Assembly (NCBI RefSeq): GCF_001612615.1
Contig: NZ_BDAU01000007.1
Coordinates: 62,001 to 126,000 of the forward strand
Source: Nocardia amikacinitolerans NBRC 108937
Lineage (GTDB): Bacteria > Actinomycetota > Actinomycetes > Mycobacteriales > Mycobacteriaceae
DNA: 64,000 nt
Direction of reading: 5' to 3'
In this document: positions 3,923 through 35,747 of the stretch, one piece after another
Position numbering within the stretch: position 1 is the stretch's first letter
Layout: each line of letters opens with the position of its first letter
The notes under the pieces: model-generated
The model's database searches: none
What the model saw: only the letters and a program-made list of their open reading frames with translations
Told to the model about the DNA's origin: nothing
Translations under genes and position numbers: made by a program

Positions 3923-5494
3923 ATGACGACCGCCCCGAAGCTGGCCGACCCGGCCGCACTGCCCGCCGACCTGGTGCGGCCGCTGCTCGAGCACGCCGTC
4001 GCGGGCGGCGCCCCCGCGGTCGAGGTCTTCGCGCCCGCGACCGGGCGGTTCGTCACCGAGCTGCCGCAGTCCTCCACCGACGACATCGAGCGCGCCTTCG
4101 CCACCGCGCGGGCCGCGCAGCGCGAATGGGCCGCGCGTCCGGTGCGCGAGCGGGCCGCCGTGCTGCGCCGCTTTCACGACATCGTGCTCGCCGAGCAGGA
4201 CGCGATCCTCGACATCGTGCAGACCGAGACCGGCAAGTCCCGCGCGCACGCCTTCGACGAGGTCGGCGACGTCGCGGTGAACGCCAGGTACTACGCCTCG
4301 GTCGCCGAGAAACTGCTGGCGACCCGCAAGCCGCGCGGCGTGCTGCCCGTCCTCACCCAGGTCGACGTGCGGAACCGTCCCAAGGGCGTCGTCGCGGTGA
4401 TCTCGCCGTGGAACTACCCGCTGGCCCTGGCCGCCTCCGACGCGCTGCCCGCCCTCGTCGCGGGCAACGCCGTTGTCGCGCGGCCCGACAACCAGACGGC
4501 ACTGACCGCGCTGTGGGCCATCGACGCCGCCGTGCGCGCCGGACTGCCGCGCGGCCTGTGGCAGGCGGTGCTCGGCCGCGGCTCGGTGATCGGCGGCGAG
4601 GTCATCGCGCGCGCCGACTACGTCGACTACACCGGCTCCAGCGCCACCGGCCGCACCATCGCGCAGCAGGCGGGTGAGCGGCTGATCGGCTACTCGCTGG
4701 AGCTGGGCGGCAAGAACCCGCTGCTGGTGCTGGCCGACGCCGACGTCTCGCGCGCCGCCAAGGTCGCCGTCCGCGCCTGCTTCTCCTCGGCGGGACAACT
4801 GTGCGAATCCATGGAGCGCATCTACGTGCACGAGGCGGTCTACGACCGGTTCGTCACCGAATTCGTCGCCAACGTGCGCTCGATCGAGCTTGGCGCGGAG
4901 CTGAACTACGACAGCGACATGGGTTCGCTGACCTTCCAGCGTCAGCTGGACACCGTGCGCGCGCACGTCGACGACGCGGTGGCCAAGGGCGCGACAGTGC
5001 TCGCGGGCGGTCGCGCGCGACCCGATCTCGGCCCGTTCTTCTACGAGCCGACCGTGCTCGCCGGCGTGCGGCCCGGCATGACGGTCTACCGCGAGGAGAC
5101 CTTCGGCCCGGTGGTCTCGGTCTACCGCGTCGGCAGCGACGAGGAGGCCATCGAGGCGGCCAACGACACCGCCTACGGCCTCAACGCCAGCGTGTGGACC
5201 AAGGACGCGGCGCGCGGCCGCGCGGTGGCCGCCCGCATCGACGCCGGATCGGTGAACGTCAACGAGGGCTTCATCGCCGCGTGGGGCAGCGCCGACGCGC
5301 CGTCCGGCGGACTCGGCATCTCCGGCACCGGACGGCGGCACGGTCCCGAAGGCCTGCTCAAGTACATCGACACCCAGACCATCGCGGTCCAGCGCGTGCT
5401 GCCGATCGCGCCGCTGCCCGGGATGTCGGAGGAGCTGTGGGCCAAGGCCATGACGCTCTACTTCAACGTCATGAAGACGCTGCGCCAGAAGTAG
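3923..5494 (+). CDS. gabD2: NAD(P)-dependent aldehyde dehydrogenase, succinate-semialdehyde dehydrogenase type
   Basis: 523-residue ALDH superfamily enzyme oxidising an aldehyde to the acid. Visible family marks are the cofactor-site motif SPWNYPL, the general-base motif ELGGKNP, the nucleophile region SSAGQLCE carrying the catalytic cysteine, and EETFGPV. Length and sequence most resemble actinobacterial GabD2-type succinate-semialdehyde dehydrogenases, but substrate is not certain. ATG at 3923 has GAGAGGG upstream. An SDR gene follows 98 bases later on the same strand. With the EthA-like monooxygenase nearby, a role in handling aldehydes from ester or ketone breakdown is an alternative. Confidence 0.88.
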   Translation: MTTAPKLADPAALPADLVRPLLEHAVAGGAPAVEVFAPATGRFVTELPQSSTDDIERAFATARAAQREWAARPVRERAAVLRRFHDIVLAEQDAILDIVQTETGKSRAHAFDEVGDVAVNARYYASVAEKLLATRKPRGVLPVLTQVDVRNRPKGVVAVISPWNYPLALAASDALPALVAGNAVVARPDNQTALTALWAIDAAVRAGLPRGLWQAVLGRGSVIGGEVIARADYVDYTGSSATGRTIAQQAGERLIGYSLELGGKNPLLVLADADVSRAAKVAVRACFSSAGQLCESMERIYVHEAVYDRFVTEFVANVRSIELGAELNYDSDMGSLTFQRQLDTVRAHVDDAVAKGATVLAGGRARPDLGPFFYEPTVLAGVRPGMTVYREETFGPVVSVYRVGSDEEAIEAANDTAYGLNASVWTKDAARGRAVAARIDAGSVNVNEGFIAAWGSADAPSGGLGISGTGRRHGPEGLLKYIDTQTIAVQRVLPIAPLPGMSEELWAKAMTLYFNVMKTLRQK

Positions 5495-24797: not shown

Positions 24798-25322
24798 TCA
24801 ACCGGATTCGGCGGCCGCTTCGAGGTAGGCGGCGGTCAGTTCCGCGAGCACCCCGTCGGCGGGCGTCGGCGCTCCGTCGAGGTGGGTGGCGCGCAGTTCG
24901 GCCATGAAGCGTTCCCAGAGGGGAGGGCCGCCCGCGGCCAGCAGCTCGGCTCGCACGGTCAATTCCGGCGTCGTGTCCAGCCAGCGTGCGCCCCACGCGC
25001 CGAGCTGTGCCATGACGGGGACGAGTTGGATCGCCGCCTCGGTGAGGCGGTAGTCGACCTTCTGGCGGTGGCTCGGGTCGTCGTGGCGGGTGAGCAGTCC
25101 CGCGTCGACGAGTTTGGCGAGGCGGTTGGCGAGGATGTTCGAGGCGATGCCCTCGATGGACGCGGTGAGCAGCTCCCGGAAGTGGGTGTTGCCGCCGAAC
25201 ATGATGTCGCGCAAGACGATCAAACTCCACCGGTCGCCGAGCAGCTCGACCGTCATGTTGATCGGACAGCCGGACTTGCCCGGGGACACCGGCAGCTTGT
25301 CATGGGCAACTGGTTGCGACAC
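24798..25322 (-). CDS. HxlR family transcriptional regulator
   Basis: 174 residues. A winged-helix HxlR domain lies at about residues 18-105: SGCPINMTVELLGDRWSLIVL with the conserved cysteine, FRELLTASIEGIASNILANRL and VDYRLTEAAIQLVPVM. A C-terminal extension of about 65 residues may sense ligand. HxlR proteins often respond to electrophiles or oxidants. GTG 25322 is divergent from the RibD-like reductase across 60 bases holding two palindromes, so it probably controls that gene and itself. Confidence 0.9.
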   Translation of the reverse strand: MSQPVAHDKLPVSPGKSGCPINMTVELLGDRWSLIVLRDIMFGGNTHFRELLTASIEGIASNILANRLAKLVDAGLLTRHDDPSHRQKVDYRLTEAAIQLVPVMAQLGAWGARWLDTTPELTVRAELLAAGGPPLWERFMAELRATHLDGAPTPADGVLAELTAAYLEAAAESG

Positions 25323-25334
25323 GGGATCAGTCTA

Positions 25335-25365
25335 GGTTAGGTTCCTAACCGATTGCATCTTGCAA
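25335..25365. promoter_or_regulatory. Candidate HxlR operator: two adjacent palindromes
   Basis: GGTTAGGTTCCTAACC at 25335-25350 has perfect 7-bp arms around two bases. TTGCATCTTGCAA at 25353-25365 has perfect 5-bp arms. Both lie between the divergent regulator and reductase starts, the position expected for autoregulated control. Confidence 0.6.
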
Positions 25366-25382
25366 CCAGAAAGGGAGTTCCG

Positions 25383-26027
25383 ATGACACAGTCGGTTCGC
25401 GTGCAGAACTTCATGGTGTCCGCCGACGGATACGGTTCCGGTGAGGGGCAGAGCTTCGAGCGCCCGTTCGGACACGCCGATCCGAGTGCGTTCTTCTCCT
25501 GGGCGGGCGCCACCGCGCACTGGCCGACCAGGACCGAGCCGGGTGGAACCTACGGCCTCGACGACTACATCACTCGCGACTACCGCCACAACATCGGCGC
25601 CGAGATCATGGGGCGCAACAAGTTCGGTCCGCACCGTGGACCGTGGGAGAACTACGACTGGCAGGGCTGGTGGGGTGACGAACCTCCTTTCCGCACACCG
25701 GTTTTCGTCCTCACCCACTACGAGCGACCCTCGATCACGCTGGGGGAAACAACATTCCACTTCCTGGATGCGACTCCGAAGGACGCGCTGGCGCGGGCGT
25801 TCGAGGCCGCCGAGGGCAAGGACGTGCGGATCGGCGGCGGGGTCGCCACGATCCGGGAGTTCCTCGACGCCGACCTGATCGACAGGATGCACTTCGCCGT
25901 CGCACCGGTCGAACTCGGTCGCGGCGAACGACTGTGGACGAGTCCCGACGAACTCGCCGACCGTTTCCACCTGGAGCGGGTCCCGCGCCCGAGCGGGATC
26001 GTGCACCACTTCTTCTGGCGGAAATGA
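25383..26027 (+). CDS. Dihydrofolate reductase-like (RibD C-terminal family) reductase
   Basis: 214 residues: VQNFMVSADGYGSG at the start, EIMGRNKFGPH, then PVFVLTHYERPS and IGGGVATIREFLDADLIDRM, the hallmarks of the RibD_C/DHFR-like fold that binds NADPH. Proteins of this branch are stand-alone and not proven to act in riboflavin or folate synthesis. ATG 25383 with AAGGGAG upstream. Control by the divergent HxlR gene is likely, suggesting induction by a reactive or toxic compound. Confidence 0.87.
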   Translation: MTQSVRVQNFMVSADGYGSGEGQSFERPFGHADPSAFFSWAGATAHWPTRTEPGGTYGLDDYITRDYRHNIGAEIMGRNKFGPHRGPWENYDWQGWWGDEPPFRTPVFVLTHYERPSITLGETTFHFLDATPKDALARAFEAAEGKDVRIGGGVATIREFLDADLIDRMHFAVAPVELGRGERLWTSPDELADRFHLERVPRPSGIVHHFFWRK

Positions 26028-26147
26028 CCTGGGCGAAAACAGAGATCAGCGCCCGTTCGGAGCGCTCGAGGAGGTTGCCCGACCGCGTCGGACGATGAAT
26101 GGAAAGCGTCCCCCGCTCCTTTCCACCTTCAACATATAGCGCACAGG

Positions 26148-26167
26148 GGGGCTTGCGGCAAGGCCCC
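26148..26167 (+). promoter_or_regulatory. Rifampin-associated element (RAE)
   Basis: The sequence GGGGCTTGCGGCAAGGCCC at 26148-26166 equals, as I recall it, the published RAE consensus found upstream of rifamycin-inactivating genes in actinomycetes. It lies 60 bases before the glycosyltransferase start. An AT-rich CATATAGC at about 26133 just before it could be the -10 region. RAE-bearing genes are induced by rifampin. Confidence 0.88.
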
Positions 26168-26225
26168 GTTCGTCACGCACAATTGCCCGCCGAAGCCGGA
26201 ACCTGCGGAAATGGGGTGTTGCGAA

Positions 26226-27458
26226 GTGCGTGTCGTGTTGTCGACGTTCGGGTCGCGTGGGGATGTCGAACCGCTGGTGGGACTCGCGGTGCGGTTGCGG
26301 GAACTCGGCGCGGGGGTGCGGGTGTGCGCGCCGCCGGACGAGGACTTCGCGCGGCGGCTGGCCGGTGTCGGCGTGCCGGTGGTGCCGGTCGGCCGGTCGG
26401 CGCGGGCGATGACGACCGAGGCGCCCGCGTCGCCGAACCTGTCCGAGCGCGCGGCCGAGGTGATCGCGAGCCAGTTCGAGGCGGTCACCGCGGCGGCCGA
26501 GGGATGCGACGCACTGGTGGCCACCGGCATGTTGCCCGCCGCGGCCGGTGCGCTGTCGGTGGCCGAGAAGCTCGGCATCCGGAGCGTGTCCGTGACCTTC
26601 CAGCAGCTCACGCTGCCATCGCCGCACCGCCCACCGCTGGCGTATCGGGGTCGGCCGCTTCCACCGGAGGTGACCGACAACCGAGTGCTGTGGGATCTGG
26701 ACGCCCAGACCATCGACGAGCTCTTCGGTGCGGCGCTCAACACCAACCGGGCCTCGATCGGTCTGCCGCCGGTGGACAACGTCCGCGACTACGTCATCGG
26801 CGAGCGGCCGTGGCTGGCGACGGACCCGACCCTCGACCCGTGGCAGCCGACCGACCTCGACGTCGTGCAGACCGGCGCGTGGGTGCTGCCCGACGACCGC
26901 CCGCTCGCCGACGACCTGCTGGCCTTCCTGGACTCCGGCGCGCCGCCGGTGTACGTGGGGTTCGGCAGCATGCCCATGCACGCGTCGAAGGACGTCGCCG
27001 AGGTGACCCTCGCGGCGGTCCGCGCGCACGGCCGTCGCGCGGTCGTCGCCCGCGGCTGGGCGGACCTGGCCCTGATCGATGACCGCGACGACTGCTTCGC
27101 CGTCGGCGAGGTCAACCACCAGGCGTTGTTCGCCCGGGTCGCCGCGGTCGTGCACCACGGCGGCGCGGGTACCACGACGACGGCCGCCGGTGCCGGTGCG
27201 CCGCAGGTCGTGGTGCCCCAGGCGGCGGACCAGCCGTACTGGGCGGGGCGGGTGGCGCAGCTCGGCATCGGCGCGGCGCACGACGGTCCGGCGCCGACCG
27301 CCGAGTCCCTGTCGGCCGCGCTCGCGACGGCCCTGAGCCCCGAGACCCGAGCGCGAGCGACCTCGGTGGCCGCCGAGGTCCGCACCGACGGGGCTGCGGT
27401 CGCCGCGCGACTGCTGGTCGACGCGCTCGATCGAGAGAGGAGGCCGGCTTCCGCGTGA
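26226..27458 (+). CDS. rgt: GT1 glycosyltransferase, probable rifamycin glycosyltransferase
   Basis: 410-residue GT-B enzyme of the vancomycin/macrolide glycosyltransferase type: MRVVLSTFGSRGDVEPLVGL at the N-terminus, VYVGFGSMP at the start of the second domain and the nucleotide-sugar motif VVHHGGAGTT near residue 310. The specific rifamycin role is inferred from context: an RAE precedes it and a HelR-type helicase is coupled to it. Rgt enzymes glucosylate the ansa-chain C23 hydroxyl and inactivate the drug. GTG 26226 begins at the family's first strand. Its stop overlaps the helR start by four bases. Confidence 0.82.
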   Translation: MRVVLSTFGSRGDVEPLVGLAVRLRELGAGVRVCAPPDEDFARRLAGVGVPVVPVGRSARAMTTEAPASPNLSERAAEVIASQFEAVTAAAEGCDALVATGMLPAAAGALSVAEKLGIRSVSVTFQQLTLPSPHRPPLAYRGRPLPPEVTDNRVLWDLDAQTIDELFGAALNTNRASIGLPPVDNVRDYVIGERPWLATDPTLDPWQPTDLDVVQTGAWVLPDDRPLADDLLAFLDSGAPPVYVGFGSMPMHASKDVAEVTLAAVRAHGRRAVVARGWADLALIDDRDDCFAVGEVNHQALFARVAAVVHHGGAGTTTTAAGAGAPQVVVPQAADQPYWAGRVAQLGIGAAHDGPAPTAESLSAALATALSPETRARATSVAAEVRTDGAAVAARLLVDALDRERRPASA

Positions 27459-29692
27459 ATCCGAGGGATCGTCGAGCCAGGGAAAGCGAGGGGCAAGTGT
27501 CAACCCAGCGGTACGAAGACGAAGTGCGGTCCGAGCGGAGCTATCTGGACGGGCTCTACGCGCGGCTCGACGCCGAGCGCGCGCGAGTGAAGGGCCGCTA
27601 CAGCGCGGCGTTGCGGGGAAACGGTGTGTCACCGATGGAACGGGATTTCGAGGTGCGCGCGCTGGGTAGAGAGATGCGGCGGCTCGACGTGGCCGACAAC
27701 GGGCTGTGCTTCGGCCGGTTGGACTCCGTGTCGGGCGAACGTCTCTACATCGGCCGGATCGGGCTGTTCGACGAGGCGAACGAGTTCGAACCGCTGTTGC
27801 TCGACTGGCGAGCGCCCGCGTCGAGCGCGTTCTACACCGCCACCGCCGCGCATCCGGAGAACATGCGCCGCCGCCGCCAATTCCACACGCGCGGAAGGCG
27901 ATTGGTCGACTTCACCGACGAGGTGCTCGGTCGCCCCCACGGTGGCGAGCGCGGCGACGCGGCCCTGCTCGCGGCGGTCGACGCGCCGCGCGGTGCGGGG
28001 ATGCGCGACATCGTGGCGACGATCCAGGCCGAACAGGATCGGATCATCCGGCTCGATCACCCGGGCGTGCTGGTGATCGAGGGCGGGCCGGGCACCGGCA
28101 AGACGGTCGTGGCGCTGCACCGCGTCGCCTATCTGCTCTACACCCAGCGCGAGCGGATGGAGCGGCACGGTGTGCTCGTGGTCGGGCCCAATCCGGCGTT
28201 CCTGACTCACATCGGCCGGGTCTTGCCGTCGCTCGGCGAATCCAACGTGGTCTTCACGACCACCGGCGATCTCGTGCCGGGTCTGCACGTCACCGCCGAG
28301 GACGCACCGGAAGCCGCGCGGCTCAAGGGCTCGCTGAAGATCCTGGACGTGCTCGCGGCGGCGGTCGCCGATCGCCAGCGGCTGCCGGAGCATCCGGTGT
28401 CGATCGAATTGAAGGACGTCACGGTGCGGATCGACGCGCCGACCGCGGAGTGGGCAAGGGAGGAGGCGCGCGCGAGTGGACTGCCGCACAACGAGGCTCG
28501 TGCGGTGTTCGGCGAGATCGTCACGTACGTCCTCACCGAGCGGGCGATCACCAGGATCGGCCGGGGCTGGTTGACCCGCGACGACCGCGAGGCATGGGAG
28601 CAGCTGCGGGCGGACCTGCTCGCGGAACTCGCGGAGGACGAGAAGTTCACCGCGGCGCTCGACGAACTCTGGCCGATTCTGACGCCGGAAACACTACTGG
28701 CAGAGCTGTATTCGTCCCCGGAGCGGTTGCGTGCGGCGGGCGCCGACCAGTCGCTGTGGCGGGCCGAGGGCGACGTCTGGACGGTGTCGGACGTGCCGCT
28801 GCTCGACGAACTCGTCGACCTGCTCGGTCGCGACAAGTCGGCGGACGGTGACGCCGACCGGGAACGCGAGGACGAGGCCGCGTACGCCGCGGGTGTGCTC
28901 GACCTCCTGGTCGGCCGCGAGGACTCGATGGACGACGAGGACCACCTGTTCGCCCAGGACATGCTCTACGCCGAGGATCTCGCGGAGCGATTCCTCGAAC
29001 GCGACACCCGTGAAGTCGCCGAACGCGCTGCGGCGGACCGGGAGTGGACGTACCGGCACATCGTGGTCGACGAGGCCCAAGAGCTGTCCGAAATGGACTG
29101 GCGGGTGCTGATGCGGCGCTGTCCCGGCCGATCCTTCACGGTGGTCGGCGATCTCGCCCAACGCCGGTCGGCCGCCGGAGCGACCTCGTGGGACGCGATG
29201 CTGGAGCCGTACGTGCCGGGCCGGTGGGTCTACCGGTCGCTGTCGGTGAACTACCGCACCCCGGCGGAGATCATGGCCGTCGCCGCCGCGGTGCTCGCCG
29301 AGTTCGCACCGGGGGTCGAGCCGCCGGAGTCGGTCCGCTCCTGCGGCGTCCAGCCCTGGCGCCGGCAGGTCACCGCGGACGAACTGCCCAGTGCCATCGA
29401 GGAATTCGTCCGCGACGAAGCCGGTCGCGAAGGCACGAGCATCGTGATCGGGCCGCCCGGCGTGCCGGGAACGGTGCCCGCCTCGGAGACGAAAGGACTG
29501 GAATTCGACGCCGTCCTCGTCGTGGAACCGGAACGAATCCTCGCCGACGGCCCCCGCGGCGCTGCCGAACTCTACGTCGCCCTCACCCGCGCCACCCAAC
29601 GCCTCGGCGTCCTCCACCGAGGCCCGCTACCGCGATCCCTCACCGGCCTCACCGGAACCGCACCACCTGTCGCGGCGGGAATCGAGCGGTAG
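27455..29692 (+). CDS. helR: HelD-family RNA polymerase-binding helicase, HelR type
   Basis: 745-residue UvrD-like ATPase. An N-terminal coiled coil (about 15-75, SERSYLDGLYARLDAERARV) enters the polymerase secondary channel. Walker A GGPGTGKTV is at about 211. An acidic, helix-rich insertion (about 455-530) could be the primary-channel arm. VDEAQELS, GDLAQRR, NYRTPAEI, TKGLEFDAVLV and YVALTRATQRL are the later helicase motifs. HelR removes rifampin-blocked RNA polymerase and confers tolerance. GTG 27455 overlaps the rgt stop (GTGA), so translation is coupled; an internal GTG at 27497 with GAGG upstream is an alternative. Confidence 0.87.
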   Translation: MNPRDRRARESEGQVSTQRYEDEVRSERSYLDGLYARLDAERARVKGRYSAALRGNGVSPMERDFEVRALGREMRRLDVADNGLCFGRLDSVSGERLYIGRIGLFDEANEFEPLLLDWRAPASSAFYTATAAHPENMRRRRQFHTRGRRLVDFTDEVLGRPHGGERGDAALLAAVDAPRGAGMRDIVATIQAEQDRIIRLDHPGVLVIEGGPGTGKTVVALHRVAYLLYTQRERMERHGVLVVGPNPAFLTHIGRVLPSLGESNVVFTTTGDLVPGLHVTAEDAPEAARLKGSLKILDVLAAAVADRQRLPEHPVSIELKDVTVRIDAPTAEWAREEARASGLPHNEARAVFGEIVTYVLTERAITRIGRGWLTRDDREAWEQLRADLLAELAEDEKFTAALDELWPILTPETLLAELYSSPERLRAAGADQSLWRAEGDVWTVSDVPLLDELVDLLGRDKSADGDADREREDEAAYAAGVLDLLVGREDSMDDEDHLFAQDMLYAEDLAERFLERDTREVAERAAADREWTYRHIVVDEAQELSEMDWRVLMRRCPGRSFTVVGDLAQRRSAAGATSWDAMLEPYVPGRWVYRSLSVNYRTPAEIMAVAAAVLAEFAPGVEPPESVRSCGVQPWRRQVTADELPSAIEEFVRDEAGREGTSIVIGPPGVPGTVPASETKGLEFDAVLVVEPERILADGPRGAAELYVALTRATQRLGVLHRGPLPRSLTGLTGTAPPVAAGIER

Positions 29693-29710
29693 GCGAACGG
29701 ATTTCGGGCG

Positions 29711-30712
29711 TCAGCGGCTGGGGGAGATGGCGTCGAGCACGCGCAGCGCGTTGCCGCCGAGCAGCAGGTGGATGGTCTCGGCGCTGAGGCCGCGGCGCAG
29801 CAGCGCGTCGGTGAGCAGCGGTAGCTGGGCGGGGCTTTCCAGTCCGCGCGCGGGTCTGATGAATCCGTCCCAGTCCGAGCCGAGCGCGACGGTCTCGCGG
29901 CCGCCGACATCGATGATGTGCAGCAGGTGATCGACGACGGCGTCGAGTTCGCCGCCGAGGTAGGCGGGGGAGAAGATGACCCCGACGACGCCGCCGGTGT
30001 CGGCGATGGCGCGGATCTGTTCGTCGTCGATGTTGCGCCACATGGGCCGGACGCCTGCCACGCCGGTGTGCGAGACGATGACCGGTCCGCGGGCGCGGGC
30101 GATGGCATCGAAGAAACCGGGGCGGTTGATGTGGGCGAGGTCGACCAGCATGCCGAGCTCGGCGCACGCATCGACGACCTCGCACCCGAAGCCGGTCAAC
30201 CCTTCTTCCTTGCTGCGTCCGATACCCATTGCGGGACAACCGATCTCGCTGCGACTGAAGTGCAGCAAGCCCAGGTAGCGCACGCCGCGCCGTGCGAAGG
30301 CGACGAGGTTGCCGAGGTCGCCTTCGAGCGCTTGGCCGCCCTCGATGCCGCGCAGCCCGACGCTGACTCCTTCGGCGCGCGCTCGGCGGATGTCGTCGCC
30401 GGTGGTCGCCAGCCGGAACCGGTCGGGATGGGCGCGCGCGGTGTCGTCGAGCGCGTCGAGTTGGCGGTGGATGTCGGCGGCGGTGCCGCGGCGCGGGTAG
30501 GGGGCCGTCCACATGCCGAACCATTGCGCGGCCAGACCGCCCTCGCGCATGCGGGGCAGGTCGACGTGTCCGACGTAGCGGCTGATCGGCCAGCGCGGTC
30601 GGTGCCGAACGGCGAAGTCGTAGCCGCGGGATATCAGTTTCGGGGTGTCGGCGTGCAGGTCGATGACGGTGGCGCTGTCGTGCACTTGCTTGGCTTCGGT
30701 GGAGACGGCCAT
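29711..30712 (-). CDS. M19 family dipeptidase (membrane dipeptidase type)
   Basis: 333-residue zinc amidohydrolase-fold enzyme: metal ligands in DLHADT (about residue 20), the bridging glutamate in RGIEGG (about 124), LVDLAHIN, VIVSHTG and the GSDWDG motif near the C-terminus. M19 enzymes cleave dipeptides, including ones with a C-terminal D-residue. No signal peptide, so it is cytoplasmic. ATG 30712 has GGAGG five bases upstream. It lies 25 bases after a DadA-like oxidase gene, suggesting joint use of D-amino-acid dipeptides. Confidence 0.9.
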   Translation of the reverse strand: MAVSTEAKQVHDSATVIDLHADTPKLISRGYDFAVRHRPRWPISRYVGHVDLPRMREGGLAAQWFGMWTAPYPRRGTAADIHRQLDALDDTARAHPDRFRLATTGDDIRRARAEGVSVGLRGIEGGQALEGDLGNLVAFARRGVRYLGLLHFSRSEIGCPAMGIGRSKEEGLTGFGCEVVDACAELGMLVDLAHINRPGFFDAIARARGPVIVSHTGVAGVRPMWRNIDDEQIRAIADTGGVVGVIFSPAYLGGELDAVVDHLLHIIDVGGRETVALGSDWDGFIRPARGLESPAQLPLLTDALLRRGLSAETIHLLLGGNALRVLDAISPSR

Positions 30713-31967: not shown

Positions 31968-32294
31968 AGCGGCACCCGCTGTGCGCCGCCGGGGACCCGG
32001 CCGGAACTGACGTAGCGCGGCACTGTGCGCCCTTCGTTTCGAACGGCGGAAGCATGTCGACGACCGACCCCCGGAAACGTCCTCGCTGGATTGCCAGAAC
32101 ATTGCCGACAGGTGGGTAGTCGCAGTCTATGCCGGGCCAGGCGACGGTGTCCTCGACGTCGGAGCACTTCGCCGCGACCCGCCGTTTCGTTTGCTCGGAT
32201 CGCGACCGTACGCCAGCCGTTGACCGGTAGATTTGGCCGATCGAACAGACGCCCGACAACTCGCGACAGACCGTGCACGTCGGAAGGGGCTGTG
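31968..32294. promoter_or_regulatory. Divergent promoter region, dadA-like gene and cydA
   Basis: 327 bases without a gene. TTGACC at 32220-32225 may be the cydA -35 box; the -10 is unclear. On the minus strand CATAGACT near 32125 could serve the oxidase gene. No strong palindrome for a redox regulator was seen. Confidence 0.35.
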
Positions 32295-33713
32295 ATGGTG
32301 TCCAGCGCGTTCGCCGAGCTCTACCTGGCGTCGACCGAGGGGCCGCCCGGTTTGCTGCCCGCGCGCCAGCAGATGGCGTTCTCGCTCGGCTGGCACATCG
32401 TGCTGGCCTGCTTCGGCGTCGCGTTTCCCGCGATGATCTATGTCGTGCATCGCCGCGGCATCGTCCGTGCCGATCCGGTCGCCCTCGGCTTGGCGAAGCG
32501 ATGGGCGACGGTGTCGGCGATCCTGTTCGCCATCGGCGCGGTCTCGGGGACGGTGCTCAGTTTCGAGATGGGGCTGCTGTGGCCGGGTTTGATGGGACGC
32601 TACGGTGACGTGCTCGGCCTGCCGTTCGCCTTCGAAGGGCTCTCGTTCTTCATCGAGGCCATCTTCCTCGGCATCTACCTCTACGGGTGGGGACGGATGC
32701 CGCCGCGGCGCCATCTCGCGATGCTCGTCCCGATGGCGGTGGCCGGCGTGGTCGGAACCTTCTGCGTGGTGAGCGTCAACGCGTGGATGAACAATCCGAC
32801 CGGGTTCCGGCTGGTCGACGGCGAGGTCACCGATGTCGACCCGTGGCGGGCAATGTTCAACGACGCCGCCTTCTTGCAGTTCGCGCACATGTGGGTCGGC
32901 GCGTTCATGGTGGTCGGCTTCGTGGTGTCGGGCGTCTACGCCGCGGGACTGTTGCGCGGTCGCCGCGACGAGCACCACCGGCTGGGTTTCACCGTGCCGT
33001 TCGTCTTCGCCACCGTCGCCGCGATCGCGCAACCGCTCATCGGGCATCTGCTCGGGATGCGGGTGCACGACACGCAACCGGCGAAACTGGCGGCGTTCGA
33101 ATTGGCCACCCACACCGAAGGTCCCGCGCCGCTGCGGATGGGCGGACTGCTCATCGACGGAAAGGTCGTGGGAGCGCTCGAGATCCCGCGGCTCGGCTCG
33201 ATCATCGCCCGCAACTCGTTGACCGCGCCGATCCCCGGACTCGACACCGTGCCACCGGAGGATCGGCCGCCGGTCAACATCACCCACCTCGCCTTCCAGA
33301 CCATGGTCGGCATCGGCACCCTGCTCGCGCTGCTGGTGATCGGGTTCTGGTTGGCGCGGTGGCTGCGCCGCGATCCGCTGGCCAACCGCTGGTTCCTGCG
33401 CGTTGCCGTCGCTGCCGGGCCCTTGGCGGTGCTCGCGCTGGAATGCGGTTGGGTCGCCACCGAAGTCGGCCGCCAGCCGTGGACGGTGTGGCGGGTGCTG
33501 CGCACCGCCGACGCGGCGAGCACGAGCACCGGCCTGTGGTGGAGCTACACCGGCGTGCTGCTGGTCTACCTCGGGATGACCGTGGGCGCGATCGTCGTCC
33601 TGCGCTCGATGACCCGCCGCTGGCGCGCGGGGGCCGAGTCCATCGCCAGCCCGTACGGCCCGGGCGCCGGTCCCGTCGACGAGGCGCAGCGCGCCATCCG
33701 CGAAAGGGGATGA
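32295..33713 (+). CDS. cydA: Cytochrome bd-type quinol oxidase subunit I
   Basis: 472 residues with about nine membrane helices. It carries heme-ligand histidines in the first helices (FSLGWHIVLACFGV), FEMGLLWPG, the long FAFEGLSFFIEAIFLGIYLYGW helix and the GRQPW motif of the quinol site. The Q-loop is short, as in the CIO-type branch rather than long-Q-loop E. coli CydA. It oxidises menaquinol and reduces O2. ATG 32295 has GGAAGGGG upstream. cydB follows after three bases; no cydDC is in the window. Confidence 0.93.
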   Translation: MVSSAFAELYLASTEGPPGLLPARQQMAFSLGWHIVLACFGVAFPAMIYVVHRRGIVRADPVALGLAKRWATVSAILFAIGAVSGTVLSFEMGLLWPGLMGRYGDVLGLPFAFEGLSFFIEAIFLGIYLYGWGRMPPRRHLAMLVPMAVAGVVGTFCVVSVNAWMNNPTGFRLVDGEVTDVDPWRAMFNDAAFLQFAHMWVGAFMVVGFVVSGVYAAGLLRGRRDEHHRLGFTVPFVFATVAAIAQPLIGHLLGMRVHDTQPAKLAAFELATHTEGPAPLRMGGLLIDGKVVGALEIPRLGSIIARNSLTAPIPGLDTVPPEDRPPVNITHLAFQTMVGIGTLLALLVIGFWLARWLRRDPLANRWFLRVAVAAGPLAVLALECGWVATEVGRQPWTVWRVLRTADAASTSTGLWWSYTGVLLVYLGMTVGAIVVLRSMTRRWRAGAESIASPYGPGAGPVDEAQRAIRERG

Positions 33714-33716
33714 CCG

Positions 33717-34736
33717 ATGGACCTGTCGGAAGTGGTCGCCACGGCGATGTTCACCGGCGTGGTGCTGTACGGGCTGTTCGGCGGCGCGGACTTCGGCTCC
33801 GGATTCTGGGATCTCACCGCGGGCGGAGCGCGGCGCGGCGGCCGGTTGCGCGTGCTGATCGATCACAGCATCGGGCCGGTGTGGGAGGCCAACCACGTGT
33901 GGCTGATCTACATCCTGGTGTTCCTGTGGACCGCCTACCCCTCGGCGTTCGCCGCCATCATGACCACGCTGTTCGTTCCGATGAGTCTGGCCCTGCTCGG
34001 AATCGTGTTGCGCGGAGCCGACTTCGCGTTCCGCAAGTACTCGGCGACGATCGCCCAGGCTCGGCTGTTCGGTGCGTTGTTCGCGGGGGCGTCACTGATC
34101 ACGCCGTTCTTCTTCGGCACGGTCGTCGGCGCTATCGCCTCGGGACGGGTGCCCGCCGAGGGATACGGTGACCGGGTGGGGTCGTGGGTGAACCCGACCT
34201 CGTTCATCGGGGGCATTCTGGCCGTGGGCACGTGTTCCTTCCTGGCCGGGGTCTTCCTCACCGCCGACGCCGCGCGTTCCGGCGATCCCGCACTCGCCGA
34301 ATACCTGCGGCCACGGACTCTCGCCGTCGGCGTGGTCACCGGTGCGCTCGCCATCGCGGCGATCGCACCGATCCGCCGTGACGCGCCCACTCTCGGTGAC
34401 GGCCTGCTCGGCCGGGCATTGCCGTTGATCGTGGTGTCGGCCGCCGCCGGGGTGAGCACGCTGGTTCTGGTGTACCGCCGCCGGTTCGGGTGGGCGCGGG
34501 TGGCGGCGCTGGTGGCGGTCGCGGCGATCGTCATCGGGTGGGCGGTCGCGCAGACACCGTGGATGCTCGTCGACGAGATGCTCATCGCCGACGCGGCGGG
34601 GGCGCGGTCGACTCTCGTCGCGCTGCTGGTTGTCGTCGCGCTCGCCGCGGTCACCGTGCTACCCGCGCTTGCCTATTTGTTCTGGCTCACCCAGACCGAC
34701 GCGTGGTCGCGCGACGAGACGGCCCACACCGGTTGA
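33717..34736 (+). CDS. cydB: Cytochrome bd-type quinol oxidase subunit II
   Basis: 339 residues, about eight membrane helices. The start VVLYGLFGGADFGSGFWDLTAGG is the CydB signature, followed by IGPVWEANHVWLIYILVFLWTAYP and the RGADFAFRKY segment. The subunit completes the bd oxidase with CydA. ATG 33717 lies four bases after the cydA stop codon, so the two are one transcript. It is convergent with the nucleotidyltransferase gene. Confidence 0.93.
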   Translation: MDLSEVVATAMFTGVVLYGLFGGADFGSGFWDLTAGGARRGGRLRVLIDHSIGPVWEANHVWLIYILVFLWTAYPSAFAAIMTTLFVPMSLALLGIVLRGADFAFRKYSATIAQARLFGALFAGASLITPFFFGTVVGAIASGRVPAEGYGDRVGSWVNPTSFIGGILAVGTCSFLAGVFLTADAARSGDPALAEYLRPRTLAVGVVTGALAIAAIAPIRRDAPTLGDGLLGRALPLIVVSAAAGVSTLVLVYRRRFGWARVAALVAVAAIVIGWAVAQTPWMLVDEMLIADAAGARSTLVALLVVVALAAVTVLPALAYLFWLTQTDAWSRDETAHTG

Positions 34737-34759: not shown

Positions 34760-35554
34760 TCAGCGGGCGATCGCCTCGGTTTCGACGCGGTCGGCGACCC
34801 AGGACAGGAAGGTGTGCACATCGGCGGCGGGCAGCGGGATCGCCGCGGAGCGCGGCCGCTGGAAACTGTGCAGCGCGTCTTCGATGAGCGGGCGGAACGC
34901 TTCCTCGGTCCGCGCTATCAGCCGCGCCGCCTGCCGTTTCGCCAGCCAGCGGCCGGTGCGGCAGAACGCGACCGAACGGCAGCCGTTGAGGACCTGGTTG
35001 TCGCTCAGGTGACCCGCGCCGTTCGCGTGCGCGCGGACCGAGGCCAGGATCGCGGCGTAGAGGTCCCGGTCATGTGGTGCCGCGACGACCTGGCGTACCG
35101 GACTTCCGTAGAGGAGCCGACCGGACTGGTGGGCGATGGAGCGATCGATGACGTACCAGAACGCCGGGGACAGCTTCGGATCGAAGTCGGCGCGGCTCGG
35201 CAACAGCGGACCGGTGTTCAGGTTCAGCAAGTACCCCGCCGCGACGGACGGCCGCTTGGCGAACTCGGCGTCGTACATCACCAACTCCAGCCCGACGGCG
35301 GGACAGGGCAGCGTGGGATGAGCGAGCACTTCCACCATCTCGCGCACCGACCGCCGGGGAAGGGCCGGGCCGACCACGACCGTCACATCGACGTCGCTGC
35401 GCCCGTGCCGATAGTCCGCGAGCGCGAGAGACCCGACCGCGAACACGCTGACGAGGTGCGATCCGCAGACCGCTCGGGTGCGCCGCACGAGCGCTTCCAG
35501 GTACGGCCGCACCTCGACAGGCAGCGATTCCGGATCCACGAGCGCGGAGGTCAT
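34760..35554 (-). CDS. AadA-like nucleotidyltransferase with DUF4111-type C-terminus
   Basis: 264 residues. The nucleotidyltransferase core is at about 35-65: VSVFAVGSLALADYRHGRSDVDVTVVV, with the GS and DxD metal-binding residues. The rest resembles the DUF4111 helical domain of aminoglycoside 3''-adenylyltransferases. It may adenylate an aminoglycoside or another small molecule; resistance is not shown by sequence alone. ATG 35554 is chosen as the start before the first helix. It stands alone. Confidence 0.78.
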   Translation of the reverse strand: MTSALVDPESLPVEVRPYLEALVRRTRAVCGSHLVSVFAVGSLALADYRHGRSDVDVTVVVGPALPRRSVREMVEVLAHPTLPCPAVGLELVMYDAEFAKRPSVAAGYLLNLNTGPLLPSRADFDPKLSPAFWYVIDRSIAHQSGRLLYGSPVRQVVAAPHDRDLYAAILASVRAHANGAGHLSDNQVLNGCRSVAFCRTGRWLAKRQAARLIARTEEAFRPLIEDALHSFQRPRSAAIPLPAADVHTFLSWVADRVETEAIAR

Positions 35555-35747
35555 GCGATCAGTATCGGCCGTGGACCGGATACCGGCCCTCGGACACGAG
35601 GGCGTAGTCGAAAACCGATGCGCGCTCTGTCGCCTATCCGTTGGGCGGCGGTTCGTCACAGGCGCGTCGCTGGTCGTGCGGCCGCCGTTCTAGTCGGCAG
35701 CCTTGACGGCGTCGGCCCGGCTCCCAGCCCCGGAACTCGCCGATTGG

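What the first reader, a model, noticed from the sequence alone, without database searches (positions are those of the whole stretch)
26148..29692. RAE-rgt-helR: one inducible rifamycin unit that both inactivates the drug and rescues RNA polymerase
An exact copy of the rifampin-associated element lies 60 bases before a GT1 glycosyltransferase, whose stop overlaps the start of a HelD/HelR-type helicase. The sequence shows the element, the motifs and the GTGA overlap. Known biology says RAE genes respond to rifampin, Rgt glycosylates it, and HelR displaces stalled polymerase. That the two steps are joined by translational coupling in this host is an inference. The glycosyltransferase class alone does not prove rifamycin specificity.
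Basis: partly seen in the sequence, partly recalled or inferred. Interest (0 to 1): 0.85.

Follow-up and report, generated by a model that had tools for sequence, protein, structure and literature searches.

The report
Rifamycin-responsive rgt-helR resistance operon
A Nocardia chromosome carries the rifampin-associated element directly followed by two resistance-type genes, one predicted to inactivate rifamycin antibiotics and one predicted to free the RNA polymerase they block, and comparison with relatives shows that the element lies inside a much longer, symmetric sequence that would work as a two-way promoter.

Summary
An exact RAE (26148-26166) lies 59 nt before a GT1 gene (26226-27458), followed by helR. 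HelR membership is firm: NF041258 1404 bits, cut-off 1100, PCh-loop aspartate kept. The GT is Rgt-like but scores 490.7 against the Rgt model's cut-off of 800, so drug specificity is inferred. The GTGA overlap exists, but helR most likely starts at GTG 27497, 38 nt after the rgt stop, with its own ribosome site; coupling through the overlap is not supported. No other RAE precedes helR here, so its induction would come through rgt. Of 105 Nocardia helR loci examined, 9 are RAE-rgt-helR and 94 RAE-helR; 12 of the 94 keep rgt debris between RAE and helR, so there rgt was lost. Two HelR lineages follow RAE-rgt units. Beyond the finding: RAE is the centre of a symmetric block. In 166 of 169 sites, and 56 of 57 further sites, -10-like hexamers lie on both sides at the same distance (21) from the dyad centre, and the upstream-facing one leads into a conserved inverted repeat. 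RAE may be a back-to-back promoter pair that RNA polymerase itself reads.

The parts
26100..26125 (.). Inverted repeat (7-bp arms, 12-nt loop) at the predicted 5' end of the upstream-facing RNA
   Evidence: stem of at least 6 bp at this place in 100 of 169 RAE sites against 30 and 18 of 169 in two control stretches. In this window no T-run follows it on the minus strand.
26131..26136 (-). Upstream-facing -10-like hexamer TATGTT (minus strand), 21 positions from the RAE dyad centre
   Evidence.A...T at this place in 167 of 169 sites. Predicted +1 at 26124 (G on the minus strand).
26148..26166 (+). Rifampin-associated element (RAE), exact 19-bp copy; holds TTGCGG (26153-26158, +) and TTGCCG (26156-26161, -) as back-to-back -35-like hexamers
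26178..26183 (+). Sense -10-like hexamer CACAAT, 19 bp after TTGCGG
   Evidence.A...T at this place in 168 of 169 sites.
26226..27458 (+). rgt-like GT1 glycosyltransferase, 410 aa, GTG start
   Evidence: NF000354 490.7 bits (cut-off 800), PF06722, PF03033; best solved relative GtfB 1iir, 483.9 bits; conserved start in relatives.
27455..27458 (+). GTGA: rgt stop overlapping an in-frame GTG of the helR frame (probably not the helR start)
27459..27496 (+). Spacer with the helR ribosome site GAGGGG (27488-27493); resembles the leader of solo helR genes
   Evidence: 7 of 5000 shuffles score as high; 98 of 5000 without the last 12 nt.
   Evidence: NF041258 1404.3 bits (cut-off 1100), NF041465 1467.6 (cut-off 1051); 1219.5 bits to M. 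smegmatis HelD 6yxu, residues 1-722 of 736; Walker motif, DWR, PCh-loop Asp482.

Best explanation
Window 26100-29692 holds an exact RAE followed on one strand by an rgt-like glycosyltransferase gene and a helR gene, which are likely transcribed together as one rifamycin-induced operon whose first product is predicted to glycosylate the drug and whose second is predicted to free stalled RNA polymerase. Shown by sequence: the element, both genes, their order and strand, HelR class membership with the rifamycin-clashing PCh-loop aspartate, and no second RAE before helR. Inferred: co-transcription; helR translation from its own ribosome site at GTG 27497 rather than through the GTGA overlap; rifamycin as the acceptor. 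In at least the 12 Nocardia loci that keep rgt debris, the common form RAE-helR arose from RAE-rgt-helR by deletion of rgt; that the longer form is ancestral for the genus is likely but not shown. The RAE is the centre of a symmetric block that looks like two promoters facing away from each other.
For: RAE exact. Only two places in the genome match the RAE pattern with at most 1 mismatch. HelR above both curated cut-offs. The second HelD (770 bits) has no RAE in its 1.5-kb flanks. No promoter-like site at the scan's threshold and no terminator-like site between the genes. RAE (at most 4 mismatches) 56-112 nt before the GT start in 75 of 81 relatives. helR follows on the same strand in 50 of 80 loci: type A 5, type B 44, other 1 (as corrected; 44 also). 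rgt debris in 12 of 94 Nocardia RAE-helR leaders with score 33 or more, reached by 0 of 100 shuffles; control pieces from the middle of rgt gave 0 and 2 of 94. Intact, debris-bearing and bare loci are interleaved on the HelR tree.
Against: The GT fails the Rgt cut-off (490.7 against 800). In an unbiased class sample only 12 of 21 GT loci have a RAE and 4 of 21 a helR (two of the 21 loci gave the same GT, so 12 of 20 distinct ones). In Nocardia the arrangement is a minority: 9 of 105 helR loci, and in a family sample 1 of 29. The closest relative by HelR (94%) has RAE-helR without rgt and no visible debris. The RTGA overlap in the helR frame recurs in 9 of 12 type-A rgt-linked loci, so translation through it is not excluded. 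No expression data.
Confidence: 0.75

Rival explanations
1. The two genes are translationally coupled: ribosomes ending rgt at GTGA start helR at GTG 27455, giving the 745-residue protein.
For: AGGAGG lies 11 nt before GTG 27455. RTGA in the helR frame recurs in 9 of 12 type-A rgt-linked loci, with spacers of 29, 38, 41 and 53 nt, all 2 modulo 3 and free of in-frame stops.
Against: The HelD_MYCSM profile and the solved M. smegmatis HelD begin at the 27497 start. A ribosome site before that start is the feature shared with solo helR (67 of 94), and in 6 of 28 solo loci an in-frame stop lies 9 to 51 nt upstream. Three of the 12 loci have no overlap.
Confidence: 0.15
2. The GT acts on another acceptor (a glycopeptide or other antibiotic), and the RAE merely makes it rifamycin-inducible.
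For: Best solved relative is glycosyltransferase GtfB, 483.9 bits, about equal to the Rgt model score of 490.7. Many database copies carry the name vancomycin aglycone glucosyltransferase.
Against: 75 of 81 relatives sit behind a RAE. The cut-off of 800 was met in 0 of 148 Nocardia and 0 of 296 class genomes, so it seems to mark near-copies only. The gene families that recur in at least 6 of 81 neighbourhoods are HelR and a FAD monooxygenase (6 loci), not glycopeptide genes; the other clusters are frame shadows.
Confidence: 0.2
3. The RAE is bound by an unknown regulator dimer, and the flanking symmetric hexamers are outer contacts of that regulator or one real promoter plus a chance mirror.
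For: The GGG and CCC arms of RAE are nearly invariant, which -35 recognition does not explain. A review and a paper suppose an unknown factor.
Against: No regulator gene recurs in 6 or more of 81 neighbourhoods of about 6 kb each side (rarer links would be missed). The invariant flank positions are those that matter in a -10 element (second and sixth; on the upstream side also the first), the third is free, and the expected start base is G in 165 of 169.
Confidence: 0.5
4. helR is expressed from a promoter inside rgt and not from the RAE.
For: Not excluded by sequence scans.
Against: No promoter-like site at the scan's threshold in 25900-30000 (the scan also misses the 19-bp RAE promoter). Of 96 Nocardia helR loci without intact rgt, 94 have a RAE 49-720 nt before helR (one of the other two is cut by a contig end), so RAE control is the rule for this gene.
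Confidence: 0.1

Closest known systems
RAE-rgt (rifampin-inactivating glycosyltransferase; recalled: Streptomyces WAC1438 Rgt1438)
   Same: RAE upstream, GT1 of about 410 aa, NF000354 matched over its full length
   Different: 490.7 bits against the cut-off of 800; here followed by helR; a second rgt-like gene (66.7% identical, 659.7 bits) stands behind the genome's other RAE without helR beside it
RAE-helR of mycobacteria and Streptomyces (M. abscessus MAB_3189c, S. venezuelae SVEN_6029)
   Same: HelR class II, RAE control
   Different: helR is second in the unit, its only RAE lies before rgt
Bacillus subtilis helD convergent-promoter rifampicin sensor (PMC12802891, abstract and passages)
   Same: Two opposed promoter-like elements, 19-bp spacers, helD and a drug-modifying enzyme as targets
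   Different: There the promoters face each other; here the -10-like elements face away and the -35-like hexamers overlap in the palindrome
GtfB-type glycosyltransferases
   Same: Closest solved structures (1iir, 3h4i, 1rrv)
   Different: Behind a RAE; no glycopeptide gene family recurs beside the relatives

Membership tests
Rifampin-associated element | 19-bp GGGGCTTGCGGCAAGGCCC-type palindrome (letters recalled) | tested here: met
   Exact
Rifampin-associated element | Induction by rifampin | not testable with these tools
   No expression data
Rgt (NF000354) | Curated score cut-off of 800 bits | tested here: not met
   490.7 bits; met in 0 of 148 Nocardia and 0 of 296 class genomes
Rgt (NF000354) | Full-length GT1 match and RAE upstream | tested here: met
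   Profile 1-410 of 411; RAE
Rgt (NF000354) | Glycosylates rifampin | not testable with these tools
   Enzyme assay needed
HelR, class II (NF041258, NF041465) | Curated score cut-offs | tested here: met
   1404.3 over 1100 and 1467.6 over 1051
HelR, class II (NF041258, NF041465) | PCh-loop with the rifamycin-clashing Asp (M. smegmatis D485), DWR and Walker motifs | tested here: met
   Asp482, DWR103, GGPGTGKT196; role of D485 from PMC11464796 passages
HelR, class II (NF041258, NF041465) | Rescues RNA polymerase from rifamycin | not testable with these tools
   In vitro transcription needed
Stop-start translational coupling | Overlapping start is the real, conserved start | tested here: not met
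   Shared start is 38 nt downstream; but RTGA recurs in 9 of 12 loci
Convergent two-promoter rifampicin sensor | Sense and antisense promoters face each other | tested here: not met
   -10-like hexamers lie outside the shared -35-like hexamers and face away

The most novel reading that the evidence does not exclude
The RAE is not just a regulator's binding site: it is two back-to-back promoters whose -35 elements overlap to form the palindrome. RNA polymerase itself reads it in two mutually exclusive directions, making either resistance mRNA or a tiny upstream hairpin RNA, and rifamycin tips the balance. The drug's target would then be the drug's sensor across Actinobacteria.
Probability: 0.22. 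Interest if true: 0.88.

Novelty: new variant of a known kind. Interest (0 to 1): 0.6.

Why it matters
RAE genes are induced by rifamycins through an unknown route; PMC12802891 and PMC10719064 (passages) leave the factor and mechanism open. The symmetric architecture gives a concrete, directly testable candidate: map starts on both strands and test RNA polymerase alone. The operon also shows drug modification and target protection held under one switch, two HelR lineages joined to the same kind of GT unit, and loci where rgt was lost while RAE-helR stayed, which suggests that target protection is the part more Nocardia lineages keep.

Tried and rejected
Linked regulator: clustering of open frames within about 6 kb in 81 loci gave, among families in at least 6 loci, only rgt, HelR, a FAD monooxygenase (6 loci) and clusters whose place marks them as frame shadows. 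RAE as an RNA hairpin: positions 4 and 16 can pair in only 39 of 169 sites, so the palindrome is more likely read as DNA. Natural rgt-helR fusion: suggested for L078 and L091 by the count; one search showed ordinary stops at 405 and 403 aa, so it was dropped and those two loci were moved to 'helR present'. Rfam: no match in 25900-30000 at E up to 0.1. Arr (PF12120): none in the genome. Rox (NF033145): best 445.9 bits, below its cut-off of 800. Consensus promoter scan of 25900-30000: 0 found; its 16-18 nt spacer cannot see the 19-bp arrangement. A terminator-like site at 26066-26048 on the minus strand is no more than chance predicts (1 found, 1.2 expected). Literature (open-licence library only): searches listed no paper that I could see to describe an rgt-helR operon or a two-way RAE promoter. 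The 2014 RAE paper and the M. abscessus HelR paper are not held. Surette 2022 was not looked up and is known to me only from reference lists and memory.
Full report
Host and layout. The window lies in a 7.6-Mb, 108-contig genome. The GT is 97-99% identical to proteins named Nocardia amikacinitolerans, so the host is Nocardia, probably that species. An exact RAE (26148-26166) is followed after 59 nt by a GT1 gene (26226-27458) and then by a HelD/HelR gene on the same strand. The gene beyond helR (29711-30712) runs the other way.

The proteins. The helicase scores 1404.3 bits on NF041258 (HelR; cut-off 1100) and 1467.6 on NF041465 (cut-off 1051), and matches M. smegmatis HelD 6yxu over residues 1-722 of 736 (1219.5 bits). 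Its clamp arm (102 aligned residues, 73 identical) keeps the aspartate that in M. smegmatis (D485) clashes with rifampicin (role of D485 from PMC11464796, passages). The genome's other HelD scores 770 bits and has no RAE in its 1.5-kb flanks, so the HelR label is firm. The GT matches the Rgt model over its full length but at 490.7 bits against a cut-off of 800, and scores 483.9 against GtfB. That cut-off was met in 0 of 148 Nocardia and 0 of 296 class genomes, so it seems to separate near-copies only. I call the gene rgt-like; its acceptor is inferred. The genome has a second rgt-like gene behind its only other RAE (1 mismatch), 66.7% identical, 659.7 bits, without helR beside it.

The helR start. 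The GTGA overlap is literally present. But profile position 1 of HelD_MYCSM falls on residue 15 of the 745-residue reading, and M. smegmatis HelD begins at the same place, that is GTG 27497. In front of it stands GAGGGG. A like site lies within 14 nt of the corresponding start in 8 of 8 rgt-linked Nocardia loci tested and 67 of 94 solo helR loci. The window's 38-nt spacer fits the solo-leader profile better than chance (7 of 5000 shuffles as high), but weakly once its last 12 nt are left out (98 of 5000). Across 12 type-A rgt-linked loci the spacer is 29 (four), 38 (three), 41, 53, 72, 121 or 1489 nt (L027 is the same locus as L170 and is counted once; L169 has a truncated helR and is left out). 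Against me: an RTGA in the helR frame recurs in 9 of these 12, so some start or re-initiation there is not excluded.

How common is the unit? 27 have none and 3 contigs end (in which L078 and L091 stood under 'none' until; 44 type B also). The five type-A and four of the type-B proteins were tested and belong to different curated HelR models, NF041258 and NF041254. Counting the window genome's second copy L019, 75 of 81 loci have a RAE with at most 4 mismatches, 56-112 nt before the GT start. An unbiased class sample is weaker: of 21 GT loci, 12 have a RAE and 4 a helR (L244 and L262 are neighbours and gave the same GT; the window genome's two copies and one Nocardia locus without RAE are left out). 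Nine GTs of a more distant Nocardia group have none. In a family sample, 25 of 29 HelR loci have a RAE and one has an intact rgt between (these are 29 of the 55 genomes over the cut-off, two of them Nocardia already counted).

Loss of rgt. Of 148 Nocardia genomes, 103 have a HelR over the cut-off; with two partial ones I examined 105 loci. Nine are RAE-rgt-helR. 94 are RAE-helR without an intact rgt (RAE with 0 to 4 mismatches, 49-720 nt before helR). Two show no RAE: L156, and L231 where the contig ends. tblastn alone finds rgt pieces in three leaders, with three different footprints: L136 (residues 349-410), L146 (1-28 and 348-410), L232 (1-51 and 230-404). At DNA level, 12 of 94 leaders hold a piece of the rgt coding start or end with score 33 or more that 0 of 100 shuffles reach; two more reach 0 of 100 with weaker scores (L152, L176), about what two tests on 94 loci would give by chance. 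Middle pieces as controls gave 0 and 2 of 94, the two being L154 and L232, which carry other debris. On a HelR tree of 40 rows, intact, debris-bearing and bare loci are interleaved: the debris label needs 7 changes (at least 6 forced by starred branches) and intact against absent needs 5 within Nocardia (quick tree, SH-aLRT only; labels count what is still visible, not deletions). So RAE-helR derives from RAE-rgt-helR in the debris-bearing loci, very likely more than once; for the other 82 the origin is open. The window's nearest relative by HelR (94%, L137) is bare, with no visible debris. On the GT tree, type-A-linked GTs fall in at least 4 places by starred branches, so GT and HelR partners have been exchanged.

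The element is larger than 19 bp. Over 169 sites (75 before rgt, 94 before Nocardia helR) conservation extends from about -30 to +45. Inside RAE, TTG (6-8) and CAA (12-14) are invariant. At exactly 21 positions from the dyad centre on both sides lie hexamers with A at position 2 and T at position 6: sense 168, upstream-facing 167, both 166 of 169. The third position is free on both sides. At other distances from 10 to 44 the same pattern is met in at most 47 sites (sense side) and 107 (upstream side, at distance 27). In 57 further sites from other genera, a second GT group and three RAEs before FAD-monooxygenase-like genes, 56 have both (these were picked from 73 loci by intact CTTG and CAAG arms and at most 5 mismatches, so their arms are conserved by choice, the flanks are not). 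The sites are related by descent, so the counts are not independent events. Read as promoters, each has a TTG hexamer with a 19-bp spacer, and the two -35 hexamers overlap in the palindrome. The expected first base of the upstream-facing RNA is G in 165 of 169.

Upstream hairpin. Around -49 to -23 lies an inverted repeat: stem of at least 6 in 100 of 169 sites against 30 and 18 in two control stretches. The folding z-score is below -2 in 72 of 169 on the minus strand and 66 on the plus strand, against 5 to 8 of 169 in controls. In the rgt set paired cells are 81% against 74% mean and 77% maximum when arms are permuted, and double substitutions 59 against a maximum of 41; in the helR set the fixed register gives 58% against 57% permuted, no clear excess. 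Ten bases on its far side are A-rich on the plus strand (4.5 of 10 against 2.0), so T-rich on the minus strand, as an intrinsic terminator facing upstream would need; but the near side is also T-rich on the plus strand (3.0 against 1.6), so the direction is not settled. In the window itself the T-run is missing.

Mechanism. Most likely: rifamycin raises transcription from the RAE promoter, one RNA carries rgt and helR, Rgt would modify the drug and HelR would clear stalled polymerase. No second RAE lies before helR, so its induction would depend on read-through of rgt (inference). How the drug is sensed is open. FEMS review PMC10719064 (passages) places the RAE over the -35 of a sense promoter and describes a second sense start about 20 bp upstream, in M. 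smegmatis. NAR paper PMC12802891 (abstract and passages) reports that B. subtilis senses rifampicin by two convergent promoters. The two-way RAE proposed here would be another arrangement. Against it: the sense -10 begins with C, both spacers are long, the GGG and CCC arms and the bases next to them are more conserved than a promoter needs, and a regulator dimer would explain the arms better. I give the polymerase-only reading 0.22.

Novelty. RAE-rgt, RAE-helR and HelR function are known; PMC8655204 (passages) reports RAE-linked helR in two actinobacterial sub-branches. I saw no paper on the joint unit, the rgt debris, or the symmetric flanks in the searches, but key subscription papers were not read.

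Noticed in passing
L019 (G000:C11), RAE 4739-4757, GT from 4818: Second RAE-headed rgt-like gene in the same genome, 66.7% identical, NF000354 659.7 bits, with no helR beside it.
   Followed up: yes
window 34763-35659 (-): Protein with an aminoglycoside adenylyltransferase C-terminal domain (PF13427, 30.5 bits), no NCBIfam match at E up to 0.001; of interest in a species named for amikacin tolerance.
   Followed up: partly
window 24798-26027: Divergent HxlR-type regulator (-) and RibD_C reductase (+) directly upstream of the RAE; not among the families recurring beside other RAE-rgt units.
   Followed up: partly
window 32025-34736 (+): Cytochrome bd oxidase subunits I and II (PF01654, PF02322).
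   Followed up: no
L169 (G134), L241 (G060), L240 (G072): helR genes whose match lacks the N-terminal part (profile from 220, 206 and 114): helR itself may decay in some Nocardia.
   Followed up: no
plasmids collection, 12 records: Relatives of this GT (59-79% identical) lie on plasmids of Streptomyces and related genera, and one on a Microvirga plasmid.
   Followed up: no
G022, G036, G012, G068, G111: A HelD copy of intermediate score (925-960 bits) in some Nocardia, between HelR (over 1100) and housekeeping HelD (about 760).
   Followed up: no
L040 RAE 10522, L051 RAE 3848 (-), L058 RAE 11077 (-): A second RAE near the rgt unit precedes a gene that begins like a FAD monooxygenase (perhaps Rox; not tested); the monooxygenase family recurs in 6 of 81 neighbourhoods.
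   Followed up: partly
JGI-named proteins: Many rgt-like proteins are named 'vancomycin aglycone glucosyltransferase' in databases, perhaps a misnomer.
   Followed up: partly
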